From: Leuctra nigra
Lineage: Eukaryota; Arthropoda; Insecta; Plecoptera; Leuctridae
DNA: 64,000 bases
Assembly (NCBI GenBank): GCA_934045905.1
Contig: OW203766.1
Coordinates: 20,392,309 to 20,456,308 of the forward strand
Reading direction: 5' to 3'
Shown here: positions 2,887 to 64,000 of the stretch, piece by piece
How the letters are laid out: every line of letters starts with the position of its first letter
Position numbering within the stretch: position 1 is the first letter of the stretch
Program-made: the position numbers and the translations under genes
Notes under the pieces: model-generated
The model's database searches: none
What the model was told of the DNA's origin: nothing
Seen by the model: only the letters and a program-made list of their open reading frames with translations

Positions 2887-3796
2887 AATCTTGGAAGCAA
2901 GAAGCATAGTGTACATGTAGCCACAACACCATAATTATAACCATGTTCCACCCGCACAATTTTTATATAAAAAAATAACCAAGGTAAGATTGTAATGATA
3001 TGTTTAGTTCTGTATCAAGTCTTTAATTATCTCAGTTTGTAATTAGCCTCTTGGTTGAGGACGTGGAGCTGAAGACGCTGGTCTAGAGATGGATTTATTT
3101 ACCGCCTCGACCGCTTAAAAACTTGCCGATACGAAATAATCGGTGCTGTTTGAGAGATAGGTAATGCCGGTGAAATATTGTTACAAAAATGTTTTAATAA
3201 AGTCCGGTATCAACTAAAATGTAACGTTATTTTTGGACTAAATTGACACCTGGCAAAATAAATACTTTTAGCTTTACATTCAGTTAAACGAACAATATTG
3301 TGAATAACATTTTCAGAATTTTATTTAAATTATGAAAATAAAAAAATTCAAATCCCTAACCGAAAAACTCAGAAATCGTGTAAAACTAATTATCCTTTCT
3401 AAACATATTAATCAGCGAGTTATAAATTGATGACTTTTGAAATTTGAAGTTCCTACTTGGGATTAGGGGTTAAGTGGTATAACCAGTTTCGAGATAAATG
3501 ACCTCCAAGTCGAACTACATACTTTTAAAAAGTTGCATTTGAACGCTAATTATAGTGTAATCTATCGCGGTTTAAGAAAACCAAAGTGGCAAGGCGGTAT
3601 AAATTAATCTTTTAAGAAAACACGATAGAAAACATAGGGAAAGAAGGGTCAAACTTTACCCCTTTTCATTCAGCAGTTTTGAATCTCCCCACACGCACCT
3701 CCCCAGTTATCAATCTCCAGCACCTCCAGCAAACACTGGAGTGATGGAGGAGTCGGAATACCGTGTGAAAGAGGCGCAACGGTTCAAAGATGTGCA

Positions 3797-3821: not shown

Positions 3822-5781
3822 TCGCAGAGTGACATGACGCATGATTGATGCTCTAGTCAGAAATCATACCAACATCGCAGTTTCCAACTTACAAACTTAA
3901 CGAGGTTCAATTCTCCAAAACTCTCATTTTTCAACAAGAAAATGGTTTGATTTCGAGTTAGATTTGTTGAGTCATTGAGAAATGCATTATTGCACCGGAC
4001 TGGTTGAAGATAAAAAAAATATATTCAATTGAATGATAATAGAAATTGTTTCGTATTAATAACACCTATAGATACGGCTGATACCAATTAAGGTATCACA
4101 TTTTCTTAACGGATTGTAAATTGAAACTAATTATAGATTTTTATTAAGCGTTAACTTAAAAATGTAAAGCAATCAAGTTATTTGTACACTGAAAGCAGCG
4201 AGTTCATCGCCTACTCGTGCGTTGATGTCTTTGAGAGCGCAAAGCTATATTTGGGTTTTAATTAATCACATTATAACATTCTTCAATGATTTAACTAACA
4301 AGTGACAAGTATATTTACTGGTAAGATGTTCAGTTATTTTAACATTGTTCCAAATCGCGATTCGTAAGATAATATTCCAGATAAATCTCTGCTTCTATGA
4401 CGCTAAGTATAATTACATATAATATAACTTGTCAACAACCATAATAGTACTAAATACAAAGGACATTATGCAAAGTCATTTGCATGCGAACATGGATTCC
4501 ATTGTCGCAATTATTGATTTCAGCTAAGTAAAGAAGTCCGTAAGCATAGTCGAGAAATAATATATTTTGTAATGTTTTCTCGAAGTAAAGGTCGCACAGT
4601 AAACGCATAAACATGGATACCCAGTGACAGGCGTAAGTAATTGAATAGATCTACTACGTAAATTAATTACAATGAACGATCACCTTCTCTTCTATAGCTT
4701 ACAATTTTATAGAACTGGTTTTCATGGATTAGTTATTGCAAATATATTCAGAATACAATAAAAGTGATGAATTTGCAAGTGAATATAAGCTTGACCTAAG
4801 GGGTGGACATCTCGGCCAGTCAAAATTTAAACACAAAAGTTTTAATATTTCCTGTGTCTAAGCATATGCACGTCAATTTTCAGATGAGTCTACTGAAAAT
4901 TATAATAATTCTGTATCATAATTTAATAATTTTGCATAGAGGGTCAAATCATTCACATGCTTTGATGATTGACGTAAATTTTCCATAAACCTTATATTTA
5001 TCATATTTTACGTAGCATATGGCAATAGATGAATTATTGATTAAGGTATCAAGCCAAATTAAAATTAAATCTGGAATAATTATAATATTTTATGGGCCAT
5101 ATGGTCGTTATTTTGTATAGTTAATGAACTTTTGAATATTCCTTAATCTTCCGTGTCAATTTGAAGACAGGAGAGCAGTTTTAAATAAAATAATAAACTA
5201 CTTTTATTAAATTTAGCATAGAACGGTCAAATCCTGCATATTACTCGAATCTTTAAATGGCGATATTTCTGAAAGTCGAAGCGTTGCGTGAGAGCATAAA
5301 CACACACACACATGTGAGAAGATGGTTGTATTTGAGATACCGTTTAAGAGATAATTGTTCGGAATCTTGCCATCATGCGACATTAATACTTATGATGCCC
5401 GCGAGATGTTGAGCGTGGGAAAACGTAGCACTTTTCCAGAAGCTATCGTCGGTGCTATAATCGCGACCTATTCGGATTAAGAGACTCAAATACGTGGACT
5501 AAAACGCTTGAAAAAAAACAGGAAATACAAATGAAATGGTTCTGACTTCTGATTTGACACATTTTCTACGAAAATCTACAGATTGCATTAAATAAAAAAT
5601 CTATAGGATTTTACTGAAATTTGTGATTAATGTTTGTTGTAATTGTTGATAAATGTTGCATCATTTAATTCATTTTAAAATTAAAACAAACGCACTCTCA
5701 AGAAACTGAATTTTATGAAAAACTTCCAGTGTAGACTGGATGATAGGAAGCAGGATGTCAGGATGTGCGAAGTGAAAAGTA

Positions 5782-5853
5782 TCCGGCCCAACTGGGGCTC
5801 GAACCCGGGACCTACACTTGCCAGGCGAGAGCGTTACCAACTGAGTTACCCTT
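5782..5853 (-). other. tRNA-like sequence, probable SINE head or tRNA pseudogene
   Basis: On the minus strand the region reads as a tRNA: an A-box-like AACTCAGTTGGTAACG, a loop CTGGCAA that would carry anticodon GGC, and a B box GGGTTCGAGCCC. The anticodon stem has two mismatches, the T stem one, and the acceptor arms do not pair, so it is not a functional tRNA. A-to-B spacing (about 43 nt) is right for internal pol III promotion. A small plus-strand ORF over it is incidental. Confidence 0.5.
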
Positions 5854-11900: not shown

Positions 11901-12842
11901 TACACTTTCTCTATCTTGGAGATTAGTATTTTGTTTTCACCCTTCTAAAATGTCAAATCGGAAAGATGGAATGGAAATAATTGTCAAGGTAAGATTGGTT
12001 ATTAACTTATTCTACTTCCTTTTGAGGCTGAATTTTACTATCTCCTTTATATTGTGTTTTTATATAATAAATATAATATATATTCTATTCAACTATCTAT
12101 TCTAAACTATATTACAGAATAAGCTACATGAATTTACGATTTGGTAAGATCCAAACTGATTAAAAGTTAAAAACCGGTGTTTGCAAGGTATACCTTCATC
12201 AAATTTGATAAATACAAATTGATGAGAATTCTATAAAATTTTTGCTCTTTAGTGTTCAGAATTGTTTTCCTGCAGAATAAAAATTACGTGATATTTTGAA
12301 AAGTGAACTTGTATTGTAGTGGATCACCTCACCATTAATAGATGTATGAAATAACATTTTCAATTATAACTTAAGGAGTAAATATAAAATGAAAATAGTA
12401 AATTATCAAATTTTACTTACTATTTTGAACCCACAAAATACGTATTTTCACCAATTGCCTACATCAACTGGTTAAAAGAACCATTTAAGAATTATTACCT
12501 ATGTAAAACAGCATTTTTTACAGTGTAAATACCGAACTCACACCATATCTAAAAATAAAAATTTTATGGTTTGTAGCTGATTAAAAATGTAATGAGGATC
12601 GTGATGCTTTAAAAAATTAACGGTATGTTGAGTGAGTGTGAGTGTACAGTACGACTTGGCTGGGTGGAGCGACCGCTCCACTAGATTATAAGTGGGAGAA
12701 ATATTGTATTTTGTTATATTTTATAACTAAAATATTCCACATACACTTACTGTCCTCTGCTGCCACGTCCCTTCTGTCAAAATAGTTGATCATACACTGT
12801 AACTCTGTGTCGATCATTTCGTCAACTCTCCTCCTCTTCCAG

Positions 12843-13024
12843 ATTCGACGCCAGCAAGTCGACGAAGGGCGCGAGCAAGTTGCGTCGCGATCTCATCAAC
12901 GCGGAGATCGCCAACTTGCGCGACTTGCTGCCACTGCCGCCGTCAACGCGACAGCGGCTGTCGCAGTTGCAGTTGATGGCGCTCGTCTGTGTTTACGTGC
13001 GCAAGGCGAACTACTTCCAGCAAG
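12843..13024 (+). CDS. dys: dysfusion/NPAS4-type bHLH-PAS factor, bHLH exon (internal)
   Basis: This internal coding exon encodes the basic helix-loop-helix domain of a class I bHLH-PAS transcription factor, a nuclear protein expected to bind DNA with a Tango/ARNT partner. The acceptor is a pyrimidine tract ending CTTCCAG at 12842. The exon then reads 1 nt of a split codon, 60 codons and 1 nt, and ends at a GTAAGA donor at 13025. The peptide begins FDASKSTKGASKLRRDLINA, continues through NLRDLLPLP and ends RKANYFQQ. The STKGASK-RRD-INAEI-NL--LLPL pattern is the hallmark of the NPAS4/Dysfusion subfamily, and the helix 2 wording (LSQLQLMALVCVYVRKANYFQQ split across the motif) agrees with what I recall of insect Dysfusion. 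In Drosophila the gene acts in tracheal fusion cells and leg joints (family knowledge). The exon is clearly GC-richer than its surroundings. Translation continues past the donor into intron for about 40 codons by chance. The first coding exon was not found upstream. Confidence 0.88.
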
Positions 13025-13130
13025 GTAAGAAAACACTCGGAAATTACAACCAACACGTCGATATCGTTGACGACATTTACGAATCTATTGATGTTGCAAG
13101 ACGATTTTACAGTGAGAAACTAAACGTGTA

Positions 13131-13329
13131 CACTCCTGGACACTGAAACTGGTCTGCGGTCAATGTTCAAGTGACACTACAGCTAGTATTTAACAATGTA
13201 ACTTTTTAGCACAAAGACCGGATGGCTAGTGTGAGTTTAGGGCCAAAAAATTACTATAAATAAATAACAAATACTAGCCTAGGAGTCGAGTGAATACTGA
13301 CTGCGGACCATTTTCCGTGTCCAGGAGTG
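13131..13329. mobile_element. Tc1/mariner-like MITE, TA target site
   Basis: This is a 199-bp non-coding element with long terminal inverted repeats. The left end CACTCCTGGACACTGAAA matches the reverse complement of the right end CACTCCTGGACACGGAAA. Similarity continues for about 43 bp with roughly eight mismatches, then further inward through GCTAGTATTT on both sides, so most of the element could fold back on itself. Both ends are flanked by TA (13129-13130 and 13330-13331), the Tc1/mariner target. It has no transposase ORF. It sits only 106 bp downstream of the bHLH exon donor. Confidence 0.8.
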
Positions 13330-28425: not shown

Positions 28426-29213
28426 GCATCTCGCCGCTGCCATGGCAACAGCATCCCAAACCTGGACCTGCATCTCGTCGCTGCCATGGCATCAGCATCC
28501 CAAACCTGGACCTGCATCTTAGCAACGAGTAGCAGCATCCCAAGCCTGGACCTGCATCTTAGCAACGAGCAACAGCATCCCAAGCCTGGACCTGCATCTT
28601 AGCAACGAGCAACAGCATCCCAAGCCTGGACCTGCATCTTAGCAACGAGTAACAGCATCCCAAGCCTGGACCTGCATCTTAGCAACGAGCAACAGCATCC
28701 CAAGCCTGGACCTGCATCTTAGCAACGAGTAACAGCATCCCAAGCCTGGACCTGCATCTTAGCAACGAGTAACAGCATCCCAAGCCTGGACCTGCATCTT
28801 AGCAACGAGTAACAGCATCCCAAGCCTGGACCTGCATCTTAGCAACGAGCAACAGCATCCCAAGCCTGGACCTGCATCTTAGCAACGAGTAACAGCATCC
28901 CAAGCCTGGACCTGCATCTTAGCAACGAGCAACAACATCCCAAGCCTGGACCTGCATCTTAGCAACGAGTAACAGCATCCCAAGCCTGGACCTGCATCTT
29001 AGCAACGAGCAACAGCATCCCAAGCCTGGACCTGCATCTTAGCAACGAGCAACAGCATCCCAAGCCTGGACCTGCATCTTAGCAACGAGTAACAGCATCC
29101 CAAGCCTGGACCTGCATCTTAGCAACGAGCAACAACATCCCAAGCCTGGACCTGCATCTTAGCAACGAGCAACAGCATCCCAAGCCTGGACCTGCATCTT
29201 AGCAACGAGCAAC
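28426..29213. repeat. 40-bp minisatellite, about 19 copies
   Basis: The unit is AGCATCCCAAGCCTGGACCT followed by GCATCTTAGCAACGAGYAAC, with Y either T or C. From 28535 to about 29213 the period is exactly 40 bp over 17 units. Two more diverged units lie at the left edge, near 28451 and 28495, with CTCGTCGCTGCCATGG in place of CTTAGCAACGAG. Two units carry AACAACATCC instead of AACAGCATCC, 200 bp apart. The array is much GC-richer than its surroundings. ORFs across its left end are by-products. Confidence 0.95.
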
Positions 29214-29484
29214 ACACCCGAACCAGCTGATCGTGATCGTGACCACGTGGTTCCGGTTCCCAAACAACGTCGTCTCAATGGAACAGGAAGAAGAACACGA
29301 GAGTTTTTATGAAGAAACTAAAAGAAACTTAAAATGATTCTTAATTAAACAATGTAAGAATTAATAAAGATACTTTTTTGGATTATTTAAACATTTAACT
29401 TAACATGGATTTACCAAAATTCTTTTTCTTTCCACCTTATACTCTACAAATTGTTATTCAATTTATTGTTTTATATAAGTTGTC
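29214..29484. other. short intronic stretch between minisatellite and foldback
   Basis: AT-rich; nothing recognisable. Confidence 0.5.
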
Positions 29485-35862: not shown

Positions 35863-37971
35863 AGAAGGGCAATAATGACAACAAATTAAAATTAAAGTAC
35901 TAATAACTAATCTAAAATTTGTACTAAAAATCGAACAAAGCTAAAAAGATGAAAATCACTAATTGATTTTTGATTTCCAAGACGGCTACTACGGAACCGA
36001 AGACTATGAAACTATGATACTTATTTTTCATATATCTTTCATACAAATTCATTTGAAAATAATCAGCTCAAAACTTCGAATCGGCCACAATAAAGCATGA
36101 TTGTTCCTCTAACAAGGCATGGGCGATGACTTGTTACAAACAACTAGATCACTACTCCCTCACTCCAGCAATTTCATTGGTCCACATTTCCTAGAACAAC
36201 ATTTTCCTTTCAATTTCTTTTCGCGGTTCTTGTAGGAACTTTTCTAAGTGGCTAGTTTAACGCTCGATATCCGTATTTAATTCTACTTGTAACAAAAGTT
36301 AAAACTCTTTTCAGTGCTCATTTAACCAACCATAACCATGGTTCTAGGTATTCGACGGTGTAAAATGTGATTTGATAAATCCATGCATTTATTATAGAAT
36401 TTCGCGTGTTGTTCACAGTAGATTTGCTCCTCTGTTCTCCGGCCAGGTGGATGCTGTGATCTGCAGATCGGGAAATTAACTTGCGTCTTCGGACACCTTC
36501 TGCCGCGTCGTGACGTATGAGTTACTTGAGCTTGAGTGCTTATTGAAGAGAAGTCAGAGGAGAAACATATCTTATTATCGCACATCAGAGATACACAGCG
36601 AGAAGTGATGAGAATCTGATTAACTAATATTTGTGTGTTCAGGTTTGAAACAAACTTGCATTGTCTTCATTCGGAGCCAACTTTTGTATACGTTCAAATA
36701 AATGTATCCGGTTTTAAACTGTAACATCAATTTTGAGTATTGAACAATTAATTTCCATCTTATATTATAACGTTGAAAATAGTGTAGGGGAGGGGGAAGG
36801 GAGGGGTGGGGCTTTGAATTAAATGTATTATCATGCCGATCGCAATGTAGTTTTTATTTATTTACTTGTAGTCAGCAGTAAGCATTTATGCAGTCGATTT
36901 TTTAATAGACGTGAACTTATTTTTTTGATGTTAGTTTCTTTCACCAAAAAAATATCAAACTTGTAAATTTTTAAAAGTAAATGGGAGCCAAAAGAAAGAG
37001 CGGTTTCACGCTCAAAAGAAGCTGCATGCGCAAGCAGATATTTTAGGACGTCAGTCCTCTACACCATAAGGCAGTGAGCTAATAATCTTATGAATATACG
37101 TTTATAATTTGTTGATATTCCTTAGCAGACCCGTAAGTATATAATAATTGCCTTGAACTGACAAATAGTTAGAGCATAGCAATCAACACTGTAACACATA
37201 CAAAACACACAAAAAAACACAATAAACTGAGATGACAGATTAAACAAAAAGTTAAACGCAAACCCTCTCTTCTCTCTGAATTAAGTAAATATTCCCGTCT
37301 TGCAGTCAATCAGCCATCATTGCTCTCTCTTCTCGACGAAGAGCAAGTACTCTTCTTGCATCCATTCAACACCATTGATTGACGTAACAACAGACTCATC
37401 AGGACCAATGAAAGACACAAGTGCGTCGAATGAATTTGATCGCAATCGAATTGACAGAAGTTTAACTGATGTGGCATGGCAGTTTTTATACCGTCTTTCG
37501 GTAAACTTCTTCGCAGTCATTGTGTGTGCAATTTCAAAGTTATAGTCCCGGTCACTTATAATGACTGTCGCGCCCATGAACAAAGTATGCCCATAATTTT
37601 GAGTCGGATGTACAGCGTATCAATCTGATGCTAAAGGCATAGAAAAACTTGTACAAAAAAAGTGAATAAAATATAGTTGAAATTGTTCATAGTAACAGGG
37701 CTCTTCTATAGATTTATAATTCTGATCCTGAGGAAAAATGAAGTCAATTACTGAACTCGGCGGGAAAAAAACTGACTGAAATATTACTCAATTTCTAAAC
37801 TGTCTCGGTAGACAGTATGTGAGGAGATCAAACTAAAGTTAGTTATGATTCATTATAAAACGTAAACTTTAATAGGATTTCGACGGATTTGTGTTAGACG
37901 GAACAGATCCACTGTTTTCTTTTGAACTTGAGTCAAGATTGTCAATAGCGAAAGCTTTTTCTTCGGCGAAT

Positions 37972-42027: not shown

Positions 42028-42530
42028 TAATAATAGCAGTCTTCATCTAGATACCAGATCCATATACTCAATATCATTCGGTTCGAGTGGTTTTGTTCGG
42101 TACCAGCTCAATAGACCACCCACCCATCGATGATTACTAGTGGGAGGCTGTGATTTCGCTTTATATTATTTAAATCATCGGCGGACTATATTTTCCTTTC
42201 AGAGATTGATACCCAGAGCTTGCATTAAATGCTATCTTACATTTCTATATTTAAATCTCCGTCCTGAGTGACTTGTTTATTTCCGAATGAGAACGCTCAG
42301 CATGTTACTTGGACTACCCCCAGCTTTCAAACCCCGAGAACTTGAATGTAATAATGCAGAGCATAATAATACAAGTGCATGCAGTTCATGCAAGTATCCT
42401 ATTTCAATAGGTACATACTTGTATACGAGAATATTATCACCAGCTGTAGTTTCATTACTATTTTCATTAGTATTTTTAATTATAATACTTTTTTGCAGTA
42501 TATTCCCATTTTGAGTATATTGTTTATTAT

Positions 42531-43132
42531 GCATTGAAATCTCCAGTTTATACTCGTCTATTCCTGCATTGAAATCTCCAGTTTAAAGTCGCCAACTCCT
42601 GCATTGAAATCTCCAGTTTACACTCGCATACTCCTGCATTGAAATCTCCAGTATATACTCGCCTATTCCTGCATTGAAATCTCCAGTTTATACTCGCCTA
42701 TTCCTGCATTGAAATCTCCAGTTTATAGTCGTCTATTCCTGCATTGAAATTTCCAGGTTTATACTCGCCTATTCCTGCATTGAAATCTCCAGGTTTATAC
42801 TCGCCTATTCCTGCATTGAAATCTCCAGTTTATACTCGCCTATTCCTGCATTGAAATCTCCAGTTTTTACTCGCCTATTCCTGCATTGAAATCTCCAGTT
42901 TTTACTCGCCATTCCTGCATTGAAATCTCCAGTTTAAACTCGCCTATTCCTGCATTGAAATCTCCAGTTTATACTCGCCTATTCCTGCATTGAAATCTCC
43001 AGTTTATACTCGCCTATTCCTGCATTGAAATCACCAGTTTATACTCGCCTATTCCTGCATTGAAATCTCCAGTTTTTACTCGCCTATTCCTGCATTGAAA
43101 TCTCCAGTTTATACTCGCCTATTCCTGCATTG
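42531..43132. repeat. 35-bp minisatellite, 17 copies plus a partial
   Basis: The unit is GCATTGAAATCTCCAGTTTA followed by TACTCGCCTATTCCT. Copies start at 42531 and every 35 bp, with two 36-bp spacings (extra G, CCAGGTTT) and one 34-bp spacing. The array stops mid-unit at 43132. Unlike a CRISPR there are no unique spacers; the units are contiguous. Confidence 0.95.
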
Positions 43133-58718: not shown

Positions 58719-60587
58719 CCTGTTTTATTTTTATTTATTTTCAATGTTTATTTTTTATTTTTATGAATAAAAAATTTAGACTTTTGAGTGAGGAAATAGT
58801 TGATTTTACCAAGATACAAGTTGTCATTTTGAAAATGCAGTTTTTAATAAAAACAATATTACAAAACCTAAATAGATTTTTAAAAGTTATAAAGTTACGG
58901 ACTTAATTTTAGTTTCATGGACCAAATCTTCTGAATGAGAGTCTGTCGGGGTCAAATCTTCGTGTAGCACAAGAGTAGGAAGATATTTTCGAATATCAAT
59001 CTTTCTTTAGTTTCCATTGATGAGGATATTCGCTAACTACGGTTAATTACATGGTAACGCTGGTTAAAGCTTCCCGCTTATCATCACTAAACATAGCTAA
59101 TCACTCAAACCCGTCGTTAGCACTAATCAAGGCATGTGATTTATTTCAAACTTTACAACTAGGAGGAAATAATAGATGCGAATCTTACGTTTACTCAGTT
59201 GCCGTTTCCTAGAATGTTTCGGTGACTTTTAATTATAGGGCAACAGTTTCTTTCGCAGGATTCTAACTGCAATTTGCTTTGCTTTTGAAGATTGTAGTGT
59301 TTCTTTAGTGTATTTACCAGCATATTGAGAACAAGAGCATGTACAAAAATATGTTATGATTTTTTTATTTTTGAAGAAAAGTAAGAACTTACACTAATGA
59401 CTCCAGGATGTAACGAAAATTAACGAAAAGCTCGGGGCAATTAACTCTTCGGGTTTGCAGTTTGAAAAACAACTTCTTCTCTGACCAGAACATTGCTTTG
59501 TAATCTGAAAAACAGACGTATAATTCTTAATCTGCCTTGGTCTTGAGTATGATTGATAAATTTTGAGTTTCACATCGTTGTGAGAGCATGTTTTAAAACA
59601 TAGAAGGCGTCAACATAGCTGCTAAAACTTGGAAATAAATCCACCCAACTTTCCGACGCTAACCAAAAACATATCAATCATGTTGAAGCCAGACTCATTA
59701 GAACTCGTTGTCTTCCCTGGTATGTGTTGGCGCGGTGCATCCAACGCTTCTGCAGAAGTTTCGCACACAAGTTGACCTCTGCTACTCGCCTTGCATGCCC
59801 AATGATGTCCAATCAACGACTGCGTAGCTTTGTTACTGCTCGGCTACTCGTGGAGAATAAGAACACGGATGTTTGTGTGAAAACTGCAATCTTAGAACAT
59901 TTACAACTGACGTTTAAGGCAGGATTACACTTAAATGCTACACCTCATGTTTATAACATTTGAGATAAAAAAAATGTTGAGAAGTTAGCAGGAATTTCCG
60001 ATTTACTGTGTTTAATGGTATTGTTTGTGTTTTTAGAGATTAATGTTGTTGAGACAGCGTGTATTTATGTACTAGGTTTGTAACAAGTTGGCCTATCTAG
60101 GTTAGAAAATTAACTTTAAAAATAATAATGTTTGCTTGAAGTAGGTTTAAAGAATGAACAAGCTTGTAGCATGGCATTCTTAGAGTCAAGGTTAACTGAA
60201 CACAAAGTAATTAATTAGAATCATTATGTAAACTTACAATCTTTAAAATTCAACAGCAATCAAAATATAGACAAAAATATAACGAGCAATCAAATAAGTT
60301 TAACAATGTGCAATTATATCAAGAAAGTGAGTGAATCCATATAAAAAGTATGTGACCTTACCTAAATTGTGATGTCACCACGTAATAACAAGTGAACCAG
60401 TCATTGTGATAACGCTACAAAACCAGTCAGCCAGACTAGTTTTCAGTGATTCCAAGAAAAGCATGGGCCTACGTGCAGAAAGAAAGTCGTTTCGCGGGCT
60501 TTAGAAATGACAGAATGTCTAAAATTAGCTACCACGTGTACGAAACCAACCAATCAGATTCTTTGGAGGGAAAACGATGTCAGAGGG

Positions 60588-60623
60588 TATAAAACGTCAG
60601 GCTACCAGCCAAACTTCATCAGT
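60588..60623 (+). promoter_or_regulatory. LTR core promoter (TATA plus initiator)
   Basis: TATAAAA at 60588-60594 and an arthropod initiator TCAGT at 60619-60623, with the A 33 bp after the start of the TATA box, as expected for a pol II start. The GC-mixed sequence downstream includes AGACC at about +25, close to a DPE. Confidence 0.65.
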
Positions 60624-61254
60624 CGGAGTTTTCTCAGAGCAGTGAGACCTGCCTCGCGAACCGTGAAGCCTTGTGCACGCAACATCGTATAATTTCAGCG
60701 AGACAGTGCCGATGTGATCGAAGGTAAACATTAAAATAACATTTTTGTATAAACGTCAACCCAGTAAATTCAAACTTCAAGCCTAATGCTGAGGCAAATA
60801 ATATCGCATTAAGACAATTTCAAGTTACAAGTGATCAACTGAACAGTTTCAACATTAAAGTCAGTAAATGTTAAAGTATAAAAGTTAGTGAATTGCAACT
60901 CCGGGAGAAACCGACGAGTCTGCAGCCACGAATGTCATCAGCCTGAGCCAACTTGATCCAACTGCTCGAGGAGGTCACTCCTTGTGCACGGACTGCTGGA
61001 CGTCCTGGTAACCAAGGGGTTATTAGACAACATCATCGCATCGCAGCTGAAGGAGGTGACATATCCAGTCATTTCATTCTGCTGGTGGACTGGAGTTCAC
61101 GGGACACACTACGCAAGAGTCAACGCCATCCACTTGTTTACGCGGAAGTAAACAAACCAGACGACATCATCACTACTGCCGACGTATCGAACGTAATATT
61201 GTTTCATAATTTTTGATTGCTCTTTTCACATCAATGAACATTTATTTTCTCTAT

Positions 61255-61260
61255 AATAAA
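61255..61260 (+). terminator. LTR polyadenylation signal AATAAA
   Basis: AATAAA lies 61 bp before the LTR end, followed by TTCTTTGTGTTC. This fits the R/U5 boundary. Confidence 0.6.
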
Positions 61261-61322
61261 CAAATTATAATATTGCTGATTCTTTGTGTTCTACCCTCTG
61301 AGCCAAATCCCGCAGGTTTCAG

Positions 61323-61347
61323 TGGCGCTCAACGTGTGGGGCTCGAA
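61323..61347 (+). other. primer binding site, tRNA-Lys type
   Basis: TGGCGCTCAACGTGTGGGGC followed by TCGAA. It is complementary to the 3' end of eukaryotic tRNA-Lys(CUU), whose complement reads TGGCGCCCAACGTGGGGCTC, except for one substitution (C to T) and a 2-nt insertion (GT). The site lies 1 nt after the LTR, where a PBS belongs. Confidence 0.8.
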
Positions 61348-61549
61348 TAACATTCCTGGGAGCAATTGTTTTGAAAGAAATAATTGTTTTCTTGATTGTG
61401 AAAGAGTTACTCAGTTGTTCTGAAACTTGTGGACACAGGCATTGCGTAAAATTTTCATGTATTTGGAAATTTTACATAGAATCAACCCGTTAACGTAAAG
61501 ATAAAGCCAACTGTAGATTTGTGCATGTTAGTTCATTACATCTGTTACG

Positions 61550-61801
61550 ATGGCAGATCGAGATGCAAGTTTATCGTCAACTGTGAATTTAGATGATACT
61601 GTAGAGGGGGCAGAGCTTAGTGAGTCAGAGGTCACGAGTATTCAGGTGATAGAGGGGGGCAGAAACATCAACTGTGTAGTTAATTGTCATGGGAACAAGT
61701 TTGTTGTTATTGATAGCGTGGGAACCAGATTAGGCATCGACAGAAATGACCTAACCCAGTCGCTGATGATTGTTGACGGAAGTCGTCTGAAGAAGATGTA
61801 A
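61550..61801 (+). CDS. 83-aa ORF1 of the LTR element, unknown function
   Basis: The first ORF after the primer binding site. It starts ATGGCAGATC at 61550, about 200 nt into the leader, and ends TAA at 61801. The protein is small and acidic at the N-terminus (MADRDASLSS...DDTVEGAELS), then alternates short hydrophobic strands with polar turns (INCVVNCHGNKFVVIDSVG) and ends in a basic tail (SRLKKM). It has no zinc knuckle, protease motif or membrane segment. It is in the same frame as the 625-codon ORF that starts 42 nt downstream, with two in-frame TAA codons separating them. The two could be independent cistrons, products of readthrough or reinitiation, or one ORF broken by mutation. I do not recognise the family. 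Confidence 0.55.
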   Translation: MADRDASLSSTVNLDDTVEGAELSESEVTSIQVIEGGRNINCVVNCHGNKFVVIDSVGTRLGIDRNDLTQSLMIVDGSRLKKM

Positions 61802-61843
61802 AGATTCAGAAAATTGAAGAATAAGTCGTAAAGAACTTTTACG

Positions 61844-63721
61844 ATGGATGAAAAAGATGAAGAATATTGGAAATCCTGGGTCGAGCTAAATAAGAAGGAA
61901 TATGAAGAACAAGAAGAAAATAGAAGTGTCAAATTAGAATTCTGCGAGTTTAGTAATCGGGATTTATACCATTTAATGAGAACAGAACGAATTGATGAAT
62001 TGTCAAGAAGAATCTATATAGAATTTGAAAGAAGAAGAGAAGAAAAATGGACGATGAAAGAATTTGCTACATTGGATGAGGAAGAGTTGATAAGTATTTG
62101 TCACGACAGGACAGAAGAAAATGCGCAGATTAGTAAAAGGGCAAGGGCAGAATTACTTAGGAGATACGACAAAGAAGACGAAAATTGGAGAAGATATAGG
62201 GAATACAAATATGAAGCAGAGGAAACGTATTCCAAGCAAAGTTCCGAATATGATGACCACGTGTACGGAGCAGAATATTATGATGATTATGCAGATTCGG
62301 AAAGTGAAGATTTGAAGCAATTGTGGCATTGGGAACGCGTAAATCTCATAGAATACGTCCGTGAAGTTTCAAGAAAATGGAAGGATGAACTGGAGAAAGA
62401 CGCTGCATTCGAAGCAGATGTTTCAACGAGAGAAGAAGAAGAAGAAGAAGAAGTTGTCTGCAATAGGTTGCAATCAGATGTGAATTCTGAGCAGAGCTGT
62501 GAGCAGCCTGACAAAGTTGAAGAAAGTTTTTATGAGGTTACAACGCCGCAAGAAGATGTTCAAGATTTTTGTCTGCCCAAGACACAGAAGAAGGAAGAAG
62601 AAGAAACGAAGATTCAGAGTCAGGATCGTGTTGAAATCGCTGATATTTCAGTACGAGAGAAAATTGAAGAAGATGCCGAGATTATACTTCCACGAGATAA
62701 TTTCGAAGAAACCAGTGAACAATTTGAAGTTGAGAAAGTTGAGTTGCAGAACAACGACGTCATCACGAAAGAGCAAGAAGATTTAGACCAGCTGAAGACA
62801 TGTGAAGTTGTCATTGAAGGTGTTAAAGAAGACGCTGTAAAGAAAGCAGAGAGTCAAGAAAACGAATCGTTCGAAGATGAAGTCATTCCAGAATGTTTGG
62901 TACAGGGAGTTGCAGAGGAAACCGTGAACAATTCACGAGATGAAAATGAAGAATTTGAGGTGACTAGACAAGCCTTGGTCAATATTGAGTTTGACGGCGA
63001 TGAAATGGAGACTGTTTGTTGTGTGGAGGATCTGAACTGTAATGTTGTTGTTGAATTGAATTTGGAGGAGGAAGAATTTGTTGATTTCAGACGCAAAGGT
63101 CGTACTGAAGATGTGAAGATTATTGAGAATCTTGAAGATATTGAGGAGATTATTGAGATTATTGAGATGGTTACTGAAACCATAGTTATTGAAGAAAAAG
63201 CAGCAGATCAAGAACAATTAGTTAAATCCGAGTCTAGTTTTGTCCAAGAATTTGAGAAGAGCGAAAATTACAACTTTTGTGCGGAGCTTAGTTCGATTCC
63301 TGCCGCAAGTATTACTGAACGAGTGAATGACGAGTTATTAATAACATTGAACGACGAGTTGACCGAAACCAGTTATGACGAGAAAATACAACCCTTCGAT
63401 TACGTAGCAAACATGGAAATGCTCGAAGAAATTGCATACGAAGAAATGATGAAGATTACATGTCCGTTGATGCAAGAATCTCTACAAATTGAAGATAAAG
63501 ACTTTCAAGATGAAGCAAGTAACGAAGAAACTGAAACGGAAGTCAAGAAAGAAAATGAAACTTATACATCGACCACTGCAAGGAATAAGCGTGAAGAATT
63601 CTTCTGGACACACCTAGTTGAGATAATTTCAATAGGGCCAACGCAAGATGTTCACGAAGATGCAGAAGTTTCATTCCCATATGATCGTGGACGGAAGAAA
63701 TATAATACATCGATCAGCTGA
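61844..63721 (+). CDS. 625-aa acidic Glu-rich ORF2 of the LTR element, unknown function
   Basis: By far the longest ORF in the window, intact from ATG at 61844 to TGA at 63721. Residues 1-130 are charged and rich in Arg, Glu, Tyr and Trp and look helical (EEYWKSW, RRIYIEFERRREEKW, RAELLRRYDKEDENWRRYRE). Residues 135-160 are an acidic Tyr/Asp stretch, and 197-203 are seven Glu in a row. The rest is Glu-dominated with Ile/Val-rich segments such as EDIEEIIEIIEMVTETIVIE (431-450). The last 25 residues turn more basic (DRGRKKY). I see no CCHC knuckle, aspartic protease DTG/DSG, RT YxDD or integrase HHCC/DDE. It sits where gag-pol would start, so it may be a divergent gag-like protein, an accessory ORF or cargo of host origin. 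That it is real coding is likely from its length; its function is unknown. Confidence 0.75.
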   Translation: MDEKDEEYWKSWVELNKKEYEEQEENRSVKLEFCEFSNRDLYHLMRTERIDELSRRIYIEFERRREEKWTMKEFATLDEEELISICHDRTEENAQISKRARAELLRRYDKEDENWRRYREYKYEAEETYSKQSSEYDDHVYGAEYYDDYADSESEDLKQLWHWERVNLIEYVREVSRKWKDELEKDAAFEADVSTREEEEEEEVVCNRLQSDVNSEQSCEQPDKVEESFYEVTTPQEDVQDFCLPKTQKKEEEETKIQSQDRVEIADISVREKIEEDAEIILPRDNFEETSEQFEVEKVELQNNDVITKEQEDLDQLKTCEVVIEGVKEDAVKKAESQENESFEDEVIPECLVQGVAEETVNNSRDENEEFEVTRQALVNIEFDGDEMETVCCVEDLNCNVVVELNLEEEEFVDFRRKGRTEDVKIIENLEDIEEIIEIIEMVTETIVIEEKAADQEQLVKSESSFVQEFEKSENYNFCAELSSIPAASITERVNDELLITLNDELTETSYDEKIQPFDYVANMEMLEEIAYEEMMKITCPLMQESLQIEDKDFQDEASNEETETEVKKENETYTSTTARNKREEFFWTHLVEIISIGPTQDVHEDAEVSFPYDRGRKKYNTSIS

Positions 63722-64000
63722 TTCTCACAGTGACAACAAGAAGTAATGTTGATGTTTGGTATGATGACCCAGCAAGAGTAGGTCACTAGGCCAATAACGG
63801 GATTGTGATAAGAGAGAGGGTTGAGTCGAGCATCGTTTCCGGGAAGTAGGATGAGGTTTGTTTTTGTTTTGGTAGATGGAGGGGTGAGTTCATTCATTCA
63901 GGTTTTGATTAGACAGCTGTAAGGGGAAATAAACTTGCATCTGTTGAAGGAAACTTTTTGTTTGTCAAAAGGAAGAGATTATTCCTGCTAGATAGTCCAG
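63722..64000 (+). other. 3' part of the LTR element, truncated by the window
   Basis: No gag-pol frame opens within these 279 bp. Purine-rich stretches (GAGAGAGAGGG at about 63811, AAGGGGAAA at about 63921) could be polypurine tracts, but no copy of the LTR start follows before the window ends. Whether pol or a 3' LTR comes next cannot be seen. Confidence 0.4.

What the first reader, a model, noticed from the sequence alone, without database searches (positions are those of the whole stretch)
60368..64000. LTR retrotransposon with a 625-aa acidic ORF where gag-pol is expected
A well-formed LTR (TATA, initiator, polyA signal) and a tRNA-Lys primer binding site are followed not by recognisable gag-pol but by an 83-codon ORF and an intact Glu-rich 625-codon ORF. 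The large ORF has no CCHC, protease, RT or integrase motif. Intactness over 1.9 kb suggests recent activity or selection. Possibilities are a novel gag type, an accessory protein ORF upstream of gag-pol, or a non-autonomous element carrying captured host sequence.
Basis: partly seen in the sequence, partly recalled or inferred. Interest (0 to 1): 0.75.

Follow-up and report, generated by a model that had tools for sequence, protein, structure and literature searches.

The report
Gag-less jumping gene with acidic protein
A recently active, many-copy jumping gene in an animal (probably insect) genome has kept its ends and one intact acidic protein but lacks the genes needed to copy itself, while a sister element with the same ends carries a capsid (Gag) gene, which suggests the working parts are split between different elements.

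Summary
The sequence is real: one complete, young LTR retrotransposon. The host assembly shows 1243-bp LTRs (window 60079-61321, and an identical copy just past the window end), a GGTT target duplication, a tRNA-Lys primer site and a polypurine-like tract. The internal region is 2784 bp, without gag-pol, so the element is non-autonomous. The 625-aa ORF is not shown to be a Gag and precedes no hidden gag-pol. The family is large (923 LTR and 738 ORF2 first-look candidates; 67 of 70 scored ORF2 copies lack a stop). A sister family with the same LTR, leader and related tail carries a 520-539-aa Gag followed by an acidic ORF homologous to the ORF2 C-terminus. The 83-aa ORF1 begins with that Gag's N-terminus. 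No pol was seen at 51 Gag and 40 leader copies examined, mostly by short stretches or by position. Best reading: a trans-mobilised element of Osvaldo-like (Ty3/Gypsy) type that encodes only an acidic protein, with Gag from a sister element and polymerase from an unseen one. Evidence that ORF2 is selected is mixed (in-frame indels for; pN/pS about 0.75 and an equally uniform non-coding leader against). Its function is inferred.

The parts
60075..60078 (.). Target-site duplication GGTT (5' copy); the 3' copy follows window-equivalent 65348
   Evidence: flanks TAGGTT | LTR ... LTR | GGTTTT
60079..61321 (+). 5' LTR, 1243 bp, TGTAACAAG...GGTTTCA; identical 3' LTR at window-equivalent 64106-65348 (in L001)
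   Evidence: identical over 1243 bp; 40 of 40 scored places (of 923 candidates) about 100% over the 953 bp queried
60587..60594 (+). TATA-like GTATAAAA in the LTR (inferred promoter)
   Evidence: consensus match only; a second GTATAAAA lies at 60876
60619..60623 (+). Initiator-like TCAGT, about 31 nt after the TATA-like site
   Evidence: consensus match only
61255..61260 (+). Poly(A) signal AATAAA in the LTR
   Evidence: consensus match only
61323..61347 (+). Primer-binding site for tRNA-Lys (Lys1,2 type), one substitution and a 2-nt insertion
61322..61611 (+). Leader (PBS, 5' UTR, start of Gag frame) shared at 97.6-98.6% with the Gag-bearing sister family
   Evidence: (356 candidates; 40 of 40 scored match over the full 290 bp)
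61550..61801 (+). ORF1, 83 aa: residues 1-34 match the N-terminus of the sister Gag (68% over 38 columns); the rest of unknown origin
   Evidence: (82-83 aa in 10 of 10 other type A copies)
61844..63721 (+). ORF2, 625-aa acidic protein; same frame as ORF1 with two TAA codons between; C-terminus homologous to the sister family's acidic ORF
   Evidence: (67 of 70 scored genomic copies without stop)
63722..64000 (+). 3' tail, continues to window-equivalent 64105 and ends AATTCAGGGGGCTC (PPT-like) before the 3' LTR
   Evidence: 86-89% identical to sister-family tails

Best explanation
SHOWN: the window holds one complete 5.27-kb non-autonomous LTR retrotransposon, one of many near-identical recent copies ('type A'). 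It carries LTRs, a tRNA-Lys PBS, a PPT-like tract, the first ~34 residues of a Gag, and one long acidic ORF. A second family ('type B') has the same LTRs and leader and encodes Gag plus a shorter acidic ORF, with no pol in the copies read. INFERRED: type A RNA is made from the LTR and packaged through the shared leader by Gag supplied in trans (by type B or an unseen autonomous Osvaldo-like element), then copied and integrated by Pol from a third element. ORF2 protein probably works as a Gag partner or accessory factor, because both families keep an acidic ORF with the same C-terminal block (YTSTTA...FPYDRGRKK) after the Gag start. Type A probably arose by internal deletion or recombination that removed most of gag and gave a longer acidic ORF.
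For: 3' LTR identical over 1243 bp, TSD, short internal region. ORF2 loci: 30 of 30 fetched match the type A internal region, 29 over its full length; LTR sequence on both sides in 29, one side in L056. Recency: 29 of 30 LTR pairs measured, 2 with truncated LTRs dropped; the other 27 show 16 mismatches in 23043 aligned bases and 19 are identical; L040 also has a 129-column gap. Sister Gag: capsid segment hits Pfam Ty3_capsid, E 4.7e-5, 23.3 bits. ORF1 residues 1-34 match the Gag N-terminus. ORF2 C-terminus 51% identical over 68 aa to the type B acidic ORF, E 2e-15. After Gag: 40 of 40 stretches sampled at +1000 nt show the type B tail, plus 6 of 6 and 5 of 5. For constraint on ORF2, in 11 copies not chosen by ORF2 (10 by their LTRs, and the window copy): the 5 gap states in the ORF2 body are multiples of 3 against 2 of 12 in leader and tail (p 0.003); polymorphic sites 60 of 1861 in ORF2 against 31 of 374 in the tail (p 4e-5); no nonsense change among 60 sites (3.2 expected, p 0.04).
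Against: No Pol-bearing element with these LTRs was found, so the supplier is unseen. pN/pS of ORF2 is only 0.74-0.75, possibly neutral given transition bias. The non-coding leader is as uniform as ORF2 (6 of 224 polymorphic sites, p 0.84 against ORF2), so low diversity in ORF2 need not mean coding constraint. Two further gap states (4 and 8 nt) fall in the last ~10 codons of ORF2 and change the C-terminus; counting them, 5 of 7 against 2 of 12, p 0.045. Among best-scoring copies, which favours intact ones, 3 of 70 have a stop. The Ty3_capsid hit is below Pfam's cut-off (29.1); the full-length Gag's best Pfam and PDB hits are weak coiled-coil-type matches. In type B the acidic ORF is broken in 3 of 11 copies read (L010, L026, L064) and lacks an ATG after the Gag stop in 5 of 11 (L019, L063, L065-L067). 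No expression data. Structure models were of low confidence (mean pLDDT 39.3 and 47.1).
Confidence: 0.78

Rival explanations
1. ORF2 is a passenger: an arbitrary non-autonomous derivative was amplified in trans so recently that its ORF has not yet decayed. No protein function is involved.
For: Copies differ by about 1-3% and LTR pairs are nearly identical; pN/pS is about 0.75 for singleton and shared variants alike; the non-coding leader is as uniform as ORF2; non-autonomous LTR elements without long ORFs can move in Arabidopsis (passages of PMC8704663).
Against: Gap states in the ORF2 body are all in frame (5 of 5 against 2 of 12, p 0.003) and no nonsense change was seen among 60 polymorphic sites (p 0.04); a sister family keeps a homologous acidic ORF, though broken in 3 of 11 copies.
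Confidence: 0.4
2. ORF2 is itself a divergent Gag that builds its own particles.
For: It sits where gag is expected and is the only long ORF; its N-terminal ~210 residues are predicted mostly helical (low confidence).
Against: No Pfam match within its cut-off and no PDB match. A separate Gag with a capsid-like core exists in the sister family, whose acidic ORF lies after Gag. ORF2 is strongly acidic and has no CCHC box.
Confidence: 0.05
3. The N-terminal ~120-150 residues of ORF2 are captured host sequence fused to a retrotransposon acidic ORF.
For: This part has no convincing counterpart in type B and no database match.
Against: The 70 scored genomic matches all cover at least residues 1-618 of ORF2; no separate host locus appeared, but only 70 of 738 candidates were scored.
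Confidence: 0.12
4. An accessory ORF upstream of a complete gag-pol (as in Drosophila MDG1 sORFs).
For: Precedent: MDG1-group sORF1 and sORF2 lie upstream of gag (PMC11952523, passages and one section).
Against: The 3' LTR starts 384 nt after ORF2; ORF1 has no strongly hydrophobic segment (maximum KD19 0.79) and no MG start.
Confidence: 0.02

Closest known systems
Osvaldo lineage of Ty3/Gypsy retrotransposons (Culex Osvaldo-like elements, PMC3286476, passages seen)
   Same: LTR about 1-2 kb, tRNA-Lys PBS, mostly 4-bp target duplication in its table (window element)
   Different: No gag-pol in this element; its lineage cannot be placed by RT phylogeny
TR-GAG non-autonomous LTR elements of plants (PMC8704663, passages seen)
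   Same: A short LTR element with a Gag ORF that moves without its own Pol resembles sister family B
   Different: Type A, the window element, lacks Gag and carries an acidic ORF; here two non-autonomous families share one LTR
CM-gag of Culex (only its title seen, in the reference list of PMC3286476)
   Same: Insect transposable-like element said to contain only a gag gene
   Different: Not compared in sequence
MDG1-group elements with sORF1/sORF2 (PMC11952523, passages and section 10 seen)
   Same: Insect LTR elements with extra proteins besides Gag-Pol
   Different: sORF2-like proteins are 63-107-aa membrane proteins, mostly upstream of gag; ORF2 here is 625 aa and acidic, with no strongly hydrophobic segment
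Plant LTR elements with additional ORFs (PMC7264820, part 1 of 3 seen)
   Same: Conserved extra ORFs of mostly unknown function
   Different: As described there they accompany gag-pol, most often between pol and the 3' LTR

Membership tests
LTR retrotransposon (complete insertion) | Two direct LTRs TG...CA, PBS, PPT, target-site duplication | tested here: met
   (the PPT is short and only PPT-like)
LTR retrotransposon, autonomous | gag and pol (protease, RT, RNase H, integrase) between the LTRs | tested here: not met
   2784-bp internal region with ORF1, ORF2 and a 384-nt tail; no Pfam match for either ORF at E 1
Osvaldo lineage (Ty3/Gypsy) | Long LTR (997-2055 bp in Culex) | tested here: met
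   1243 bp; range
Osvaldo lineage (Ty3/Gypsy) | PBS complementary to tRNA-Lys | tested here: met
   one substitution and a 2-nt insertion
Osvaldo lineage (Ty3/Gypsy) | RT/RNase H/integrase phylogeny | not testable with these tools
   No pol in the type A or B copies read
Ty3/Gypsy Gag (sister family B) | Ty3-type capsid domain | tested here: inconclusive
   PF19259 E 4.7e-5, 23.3 bits against cut-off 29.1; Retrotrans_gag E 0.047 (segment) and 0.47 (full length)
TR-GAG | Single complete Gag ORF, no pol | tested here: not met
   Window element has only ~34 Gag residues. The sister family has a complete Gag and no pol but adds an acidic ORF
MDG1-type sORF2/FAST-like accessory protein | Transmembrane segment and N-myristoylation motif | tested here: not met
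   ORF1 begins MADR, maximum KD19 0.79; ORF2 begins MDEK, maximum KD19 0.95

The most novel reading that the evidence does not exclude
A divided LTR retrotransposon: two high-copy families with near-identical LTRs and leader split the coding load, one supplying Gag (plus a short acidic ORF) and the other only a long acidic accessory protein. Polymerase comes from a third, rare or diverged element, and the acidic protein is selected because it is needed in trans for the shared particle.
Probability: 0.27. Interest if true: 0.75.

Novelty: new variant of a known kind. Interest (0 to 1): 0.55.

Why it matters
Known non-autonomous LTR elements, as far as I recall and saw, keep either no protein or Gag. 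A very successful one that keeps only a large acidic protein, beside a Gag-bearing sister with the same ends, would show that retrotransposon functions can be split among separately amplifying elements, as in multipartite viruses. The young, near-identical copies make this testable by transcript, ribosome-profiling and proteome data from one species.

Tried and rejected
No relative of ORF2 or ORF1 was found in Pfam, the 5.8-billion-protein set or viral contigs; nor of ORF2 in the PDB or prokaryotic genome contigs. These collections may hold few insect sequences, so this says little about insects. The PBS pattern had no match in viral contigs. An apparent repeat between ORF2 residues 31-68 and 69-112 was reached by 26 of 2000 shuffles of that chosen pair, but with free choice of windows in residues 1-200 the best score was reached by 134 of 200 shuffles, so I dropped it. 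A Terminase_3 match to ORF2 residues 1-200 (E 0.014, below cut-off) was judged chance, as was a PDB match of the type B Gag coiled coil to a Rev protein (E 0.082). AlphaFold models of both ORFs were too poor for a fold search, so none was run. A search for RT-bearing partners (PF17919) did not complete in five tries, nor one with the type B acidic ORF in two. One leader copy without A or B sequence 600-950 nt downstream (L110) proved to be a type A copy cut at internal position 674.
Full report
OBSERVATION. ORF1 (61550-61801, 83 codons) and ORF2 (61844-63721, 625 codons, 21.4% Glu, pI 4.25) are present, in the same frame and separated by two TAA codons. The open frame far exceeds shuffled and Markov controls (longest 227 and 316 codons against 629). 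TGGCGCTCAACGTG follows the LTR and is the only window match within 2 mismatches, 0.12 expected. It corresponds to the tRNA-Lys1,2 PBS (letters in PMC1084362, passage) with one substitution and a 2-nt insertion.

EXTENT. The host assembly (536 Mb, 144 contigs) answered. The window is C5:20392309-20456308. The LTR is 1243 bp, window 60079-61321, not 60368 onward. An identical copy lies at window-equivalent 64106-65348, the pair is flanked by GGTT, and CAGGGGGCTC precedes the 3' LTR. The internal region is 2784 bp: 228 nt with the PBS, ORF1, ORF2 and a 384-nt tail. ORF1 and ORF2 have no Pfam match; the tail has no long open frame.

COPIES. LTR search: 923 first-look candidates, 40 scored, all about 100%. 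ORF2 protein search: 738 candidates, 70 scored, 96-100% identical, 67 of 70 without stops; these are the best-scoring ones, so intact copies are favoured. The 30 ORF2 loci fetched all match the same element: LTR on both sides in 29, on one side in L056, whose internal match ends at 2374. LTR pairs: 29 of 30 measured (L056 has none), 2 with truncated LTRs dropped (L046, L048); the other 27 have 16 mismatches in 23043 bases and 19 are identical; L040 also has a 129-column gap. These copies are very recent.

SISTER FAMILY. One search fetched 20 stretches beside LTRs. Ten are type A (L009, L011-L018, L020; ORF1 82-83 aa and ORF2 623-647 aa in 10 of 10), five a different type B (L010, L019, L021, L022, L026), L023 a deleted B, and four (L024, L025, L027, L028) showed no internal sequence on that side. 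Type B shares the LTR, the first 290 internal bases (97.6-98.6%) and the tail (86-89%). It encodes a 520-539-aa protein beginning MADRDAS with a coiled-coil-like part, a capsid-like core and an Asn/Gly/Arg-rich tail. The core matches Pfam Ty3_capsid at E 4.7e-5, below the curated cut-off; the full-length protein shows Retrotrans_gag only at E 0.47, behind weak coiled-coil-type hits, and a PDB hit to a Rev protein at E 0.082. I call it Gag on the capsid match, position and tail. ORF1 of type A starts with the same residues (1-34, 68% over 38 columns), so ORF1 begins as a Gag remnant. After Gag, type B has an acidic ORF of about 297 aa. Its C-terminal block is 51% identical over 68 aa to the ORF2 C-terminus (E 2e-15) and another part aligns at 28% (E 2e-11). 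The first ~120-150 residues of ORF2 have no convincing counterpart. In 11 type B copies read, the acidic ORF is broken in three (L010, L026, L064) and has an ATG just after the Gag stop in six. In L063 the acidic frame overlaps the end of Gag, so frameshift expression is possible but untested.

SEARCH FOR THE POLYMERASE. Gag search: 2196 candidates, 82 scored places (118 rows), one with a stop. I examined 51 Gag copies: 5 (L063-L068) and 40 by a 351-base stretch 1.0-1.35 kb after Gag. All show type B sequence there and none pol; 39 of the 40 stretches also reach the LTR start (L105 shows tail only). Leader search: 356 candidates, 40 scored. By coordinates 26 of 40 lie beside an ORF2. The other 14 were sampled by 351 bases: 12 type A, 1 type B, 1 truncated type A. 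Two single LTRs (C4:33561268, C4:31725687) had no internal sequence on either side; a third (C11:4354991) is the 3' LTR of a type A copy. The single LTR at C7:14621053 lies by coordinates beside an ORF2. Three further single LTRs (C2:15854646, C1:39610805, and C2:43126588, which lies by coordinates beside a Gag) were not fetched. An RT-family search did not complete. The polymerase source is unknown, and most candidates were not scored.

SELECTION. Over 11 type A copies not chosen by ORF2 (10 by their LTRs, and the window copy), pooled pN/pS is 0.74; over 35 distinct copies it is 0.75 for singletons and 0.75 for shared variants. This is weak, and transition bias could explain it. For constraint: the 5 gap states in the ORF2 body are multiples of 3 against 2 of 12 in leader and tail (p 0.003; an earlier count of 2 of 11 missed one; two of the 12, at 61321, come from trimming, and without them it is 1 of 10, p 0.002). 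No nonsense change was seen among 60 polymorphic sites where 3.2 were expected (p 0.04). Polymorphic sites are 60 of 1861 in ORF2 and 31 of 374 in the tail (p 4e-5). Against: the leader is as uniform as ORF2 (6 of 224, p 0.84), ORF1 has 14 of 249 and the spacer 4 of 42; and two frame-changing gap states lie in the last ~10 codons of ORF2 (with them 5 of 7 against 2 of 12, p 0.045). Gap states at one site are not independent and tail lineages may have recombined, so the p-values are optimistic. Because the leader result had been left out of my first weighing, I raised the passenger rival from 0.35 to 0.40 and lowered the novel case from 0.30 to 0.27.

MECHANISM. Shown: structure, copy number, recency, relation to type B. 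Inferred: LTR-driven transcription (TATA-like 60587, TCAGT 60619, AATAAA 61255; consensus matches only), packaging via the shared leader by Gag in trans, and reverse transcription by an unseen Pol. ORF2 as a Gag partner or accessory factor is a guess from the homologous ORF next to Gag in type B. The structure models gave no help.

COMPARISON. LTR length, tRNA-Lys PBS and 4-bp duplication fit the Osvaldo lineage as described for Culex (PMC3286476, passages: LTR 997-2055 bp, PBS invariantly Lys). RT phylogeny cannot be tested. Type B resembles TR-GAG elements (PMC8704663, passages). In the listings and passages seen I met no accessory-only LTR element like type A (searches; open-access papers only), which is not proof of absence.

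HOST. Animal, probably insect: the window holds an NPAS4-type bHLH exon at 12790-13143 (Pfam E 6.3e-23), which I read as dysfusion (recalled). The species is not known.

Noticed in passing
window 12790-13143 (+): Exon with an NPAS4-type bHLH domain (Pfam PF23183, E 6.3e-23); probably the dysfusion gene (recalled name), some 47 kb from the element.
   Followed up: partly
window 37320-37619 (-): 100-aa open frame with a marginal Phage_lysozyme match (E 1.8e-4, 22.3 bits, exactly at cut-off).
   Followed up: no
window 28445-29214 and 42530-43132: Two minisatellites: 40-bp unit x19 (96% match) and 35-bp unit x17 (94% match).
   Followed up: no
window around 5771-5820: Second-best match to the tRNA-Lys PBS in the window (score 16.0 against 18.5); may be a tRNA-derived SINE.
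   Followed up: no
L017 (C1:24108645-24113805): Tandem type A: a full internal region, then about 1.25 kb that reads as LTR, then a second, partial internal region (positions 1968-2784).
   Followed up: partly
L038, L051, L063, L068: LTRs lacking about positions 646-795 (L051 656-795, L063 646-808), apparently an LTR subtype found in both A (L038, L051) and B (L063, L068).
   Followed up: no
L061, reverse strand, frame from base 3019: 146-aa frame that looks by eye like another retrotransposon Gag, near a solo LTR of this family.
   Followed up: no
L123/L124 (C11:18630200-18633180): Truncated type A copy; L124, '-' frame from 1639, looks by eye like a formylglycine-generating-enzyme (SUMF1) exon (recalled).
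   Followed up: no
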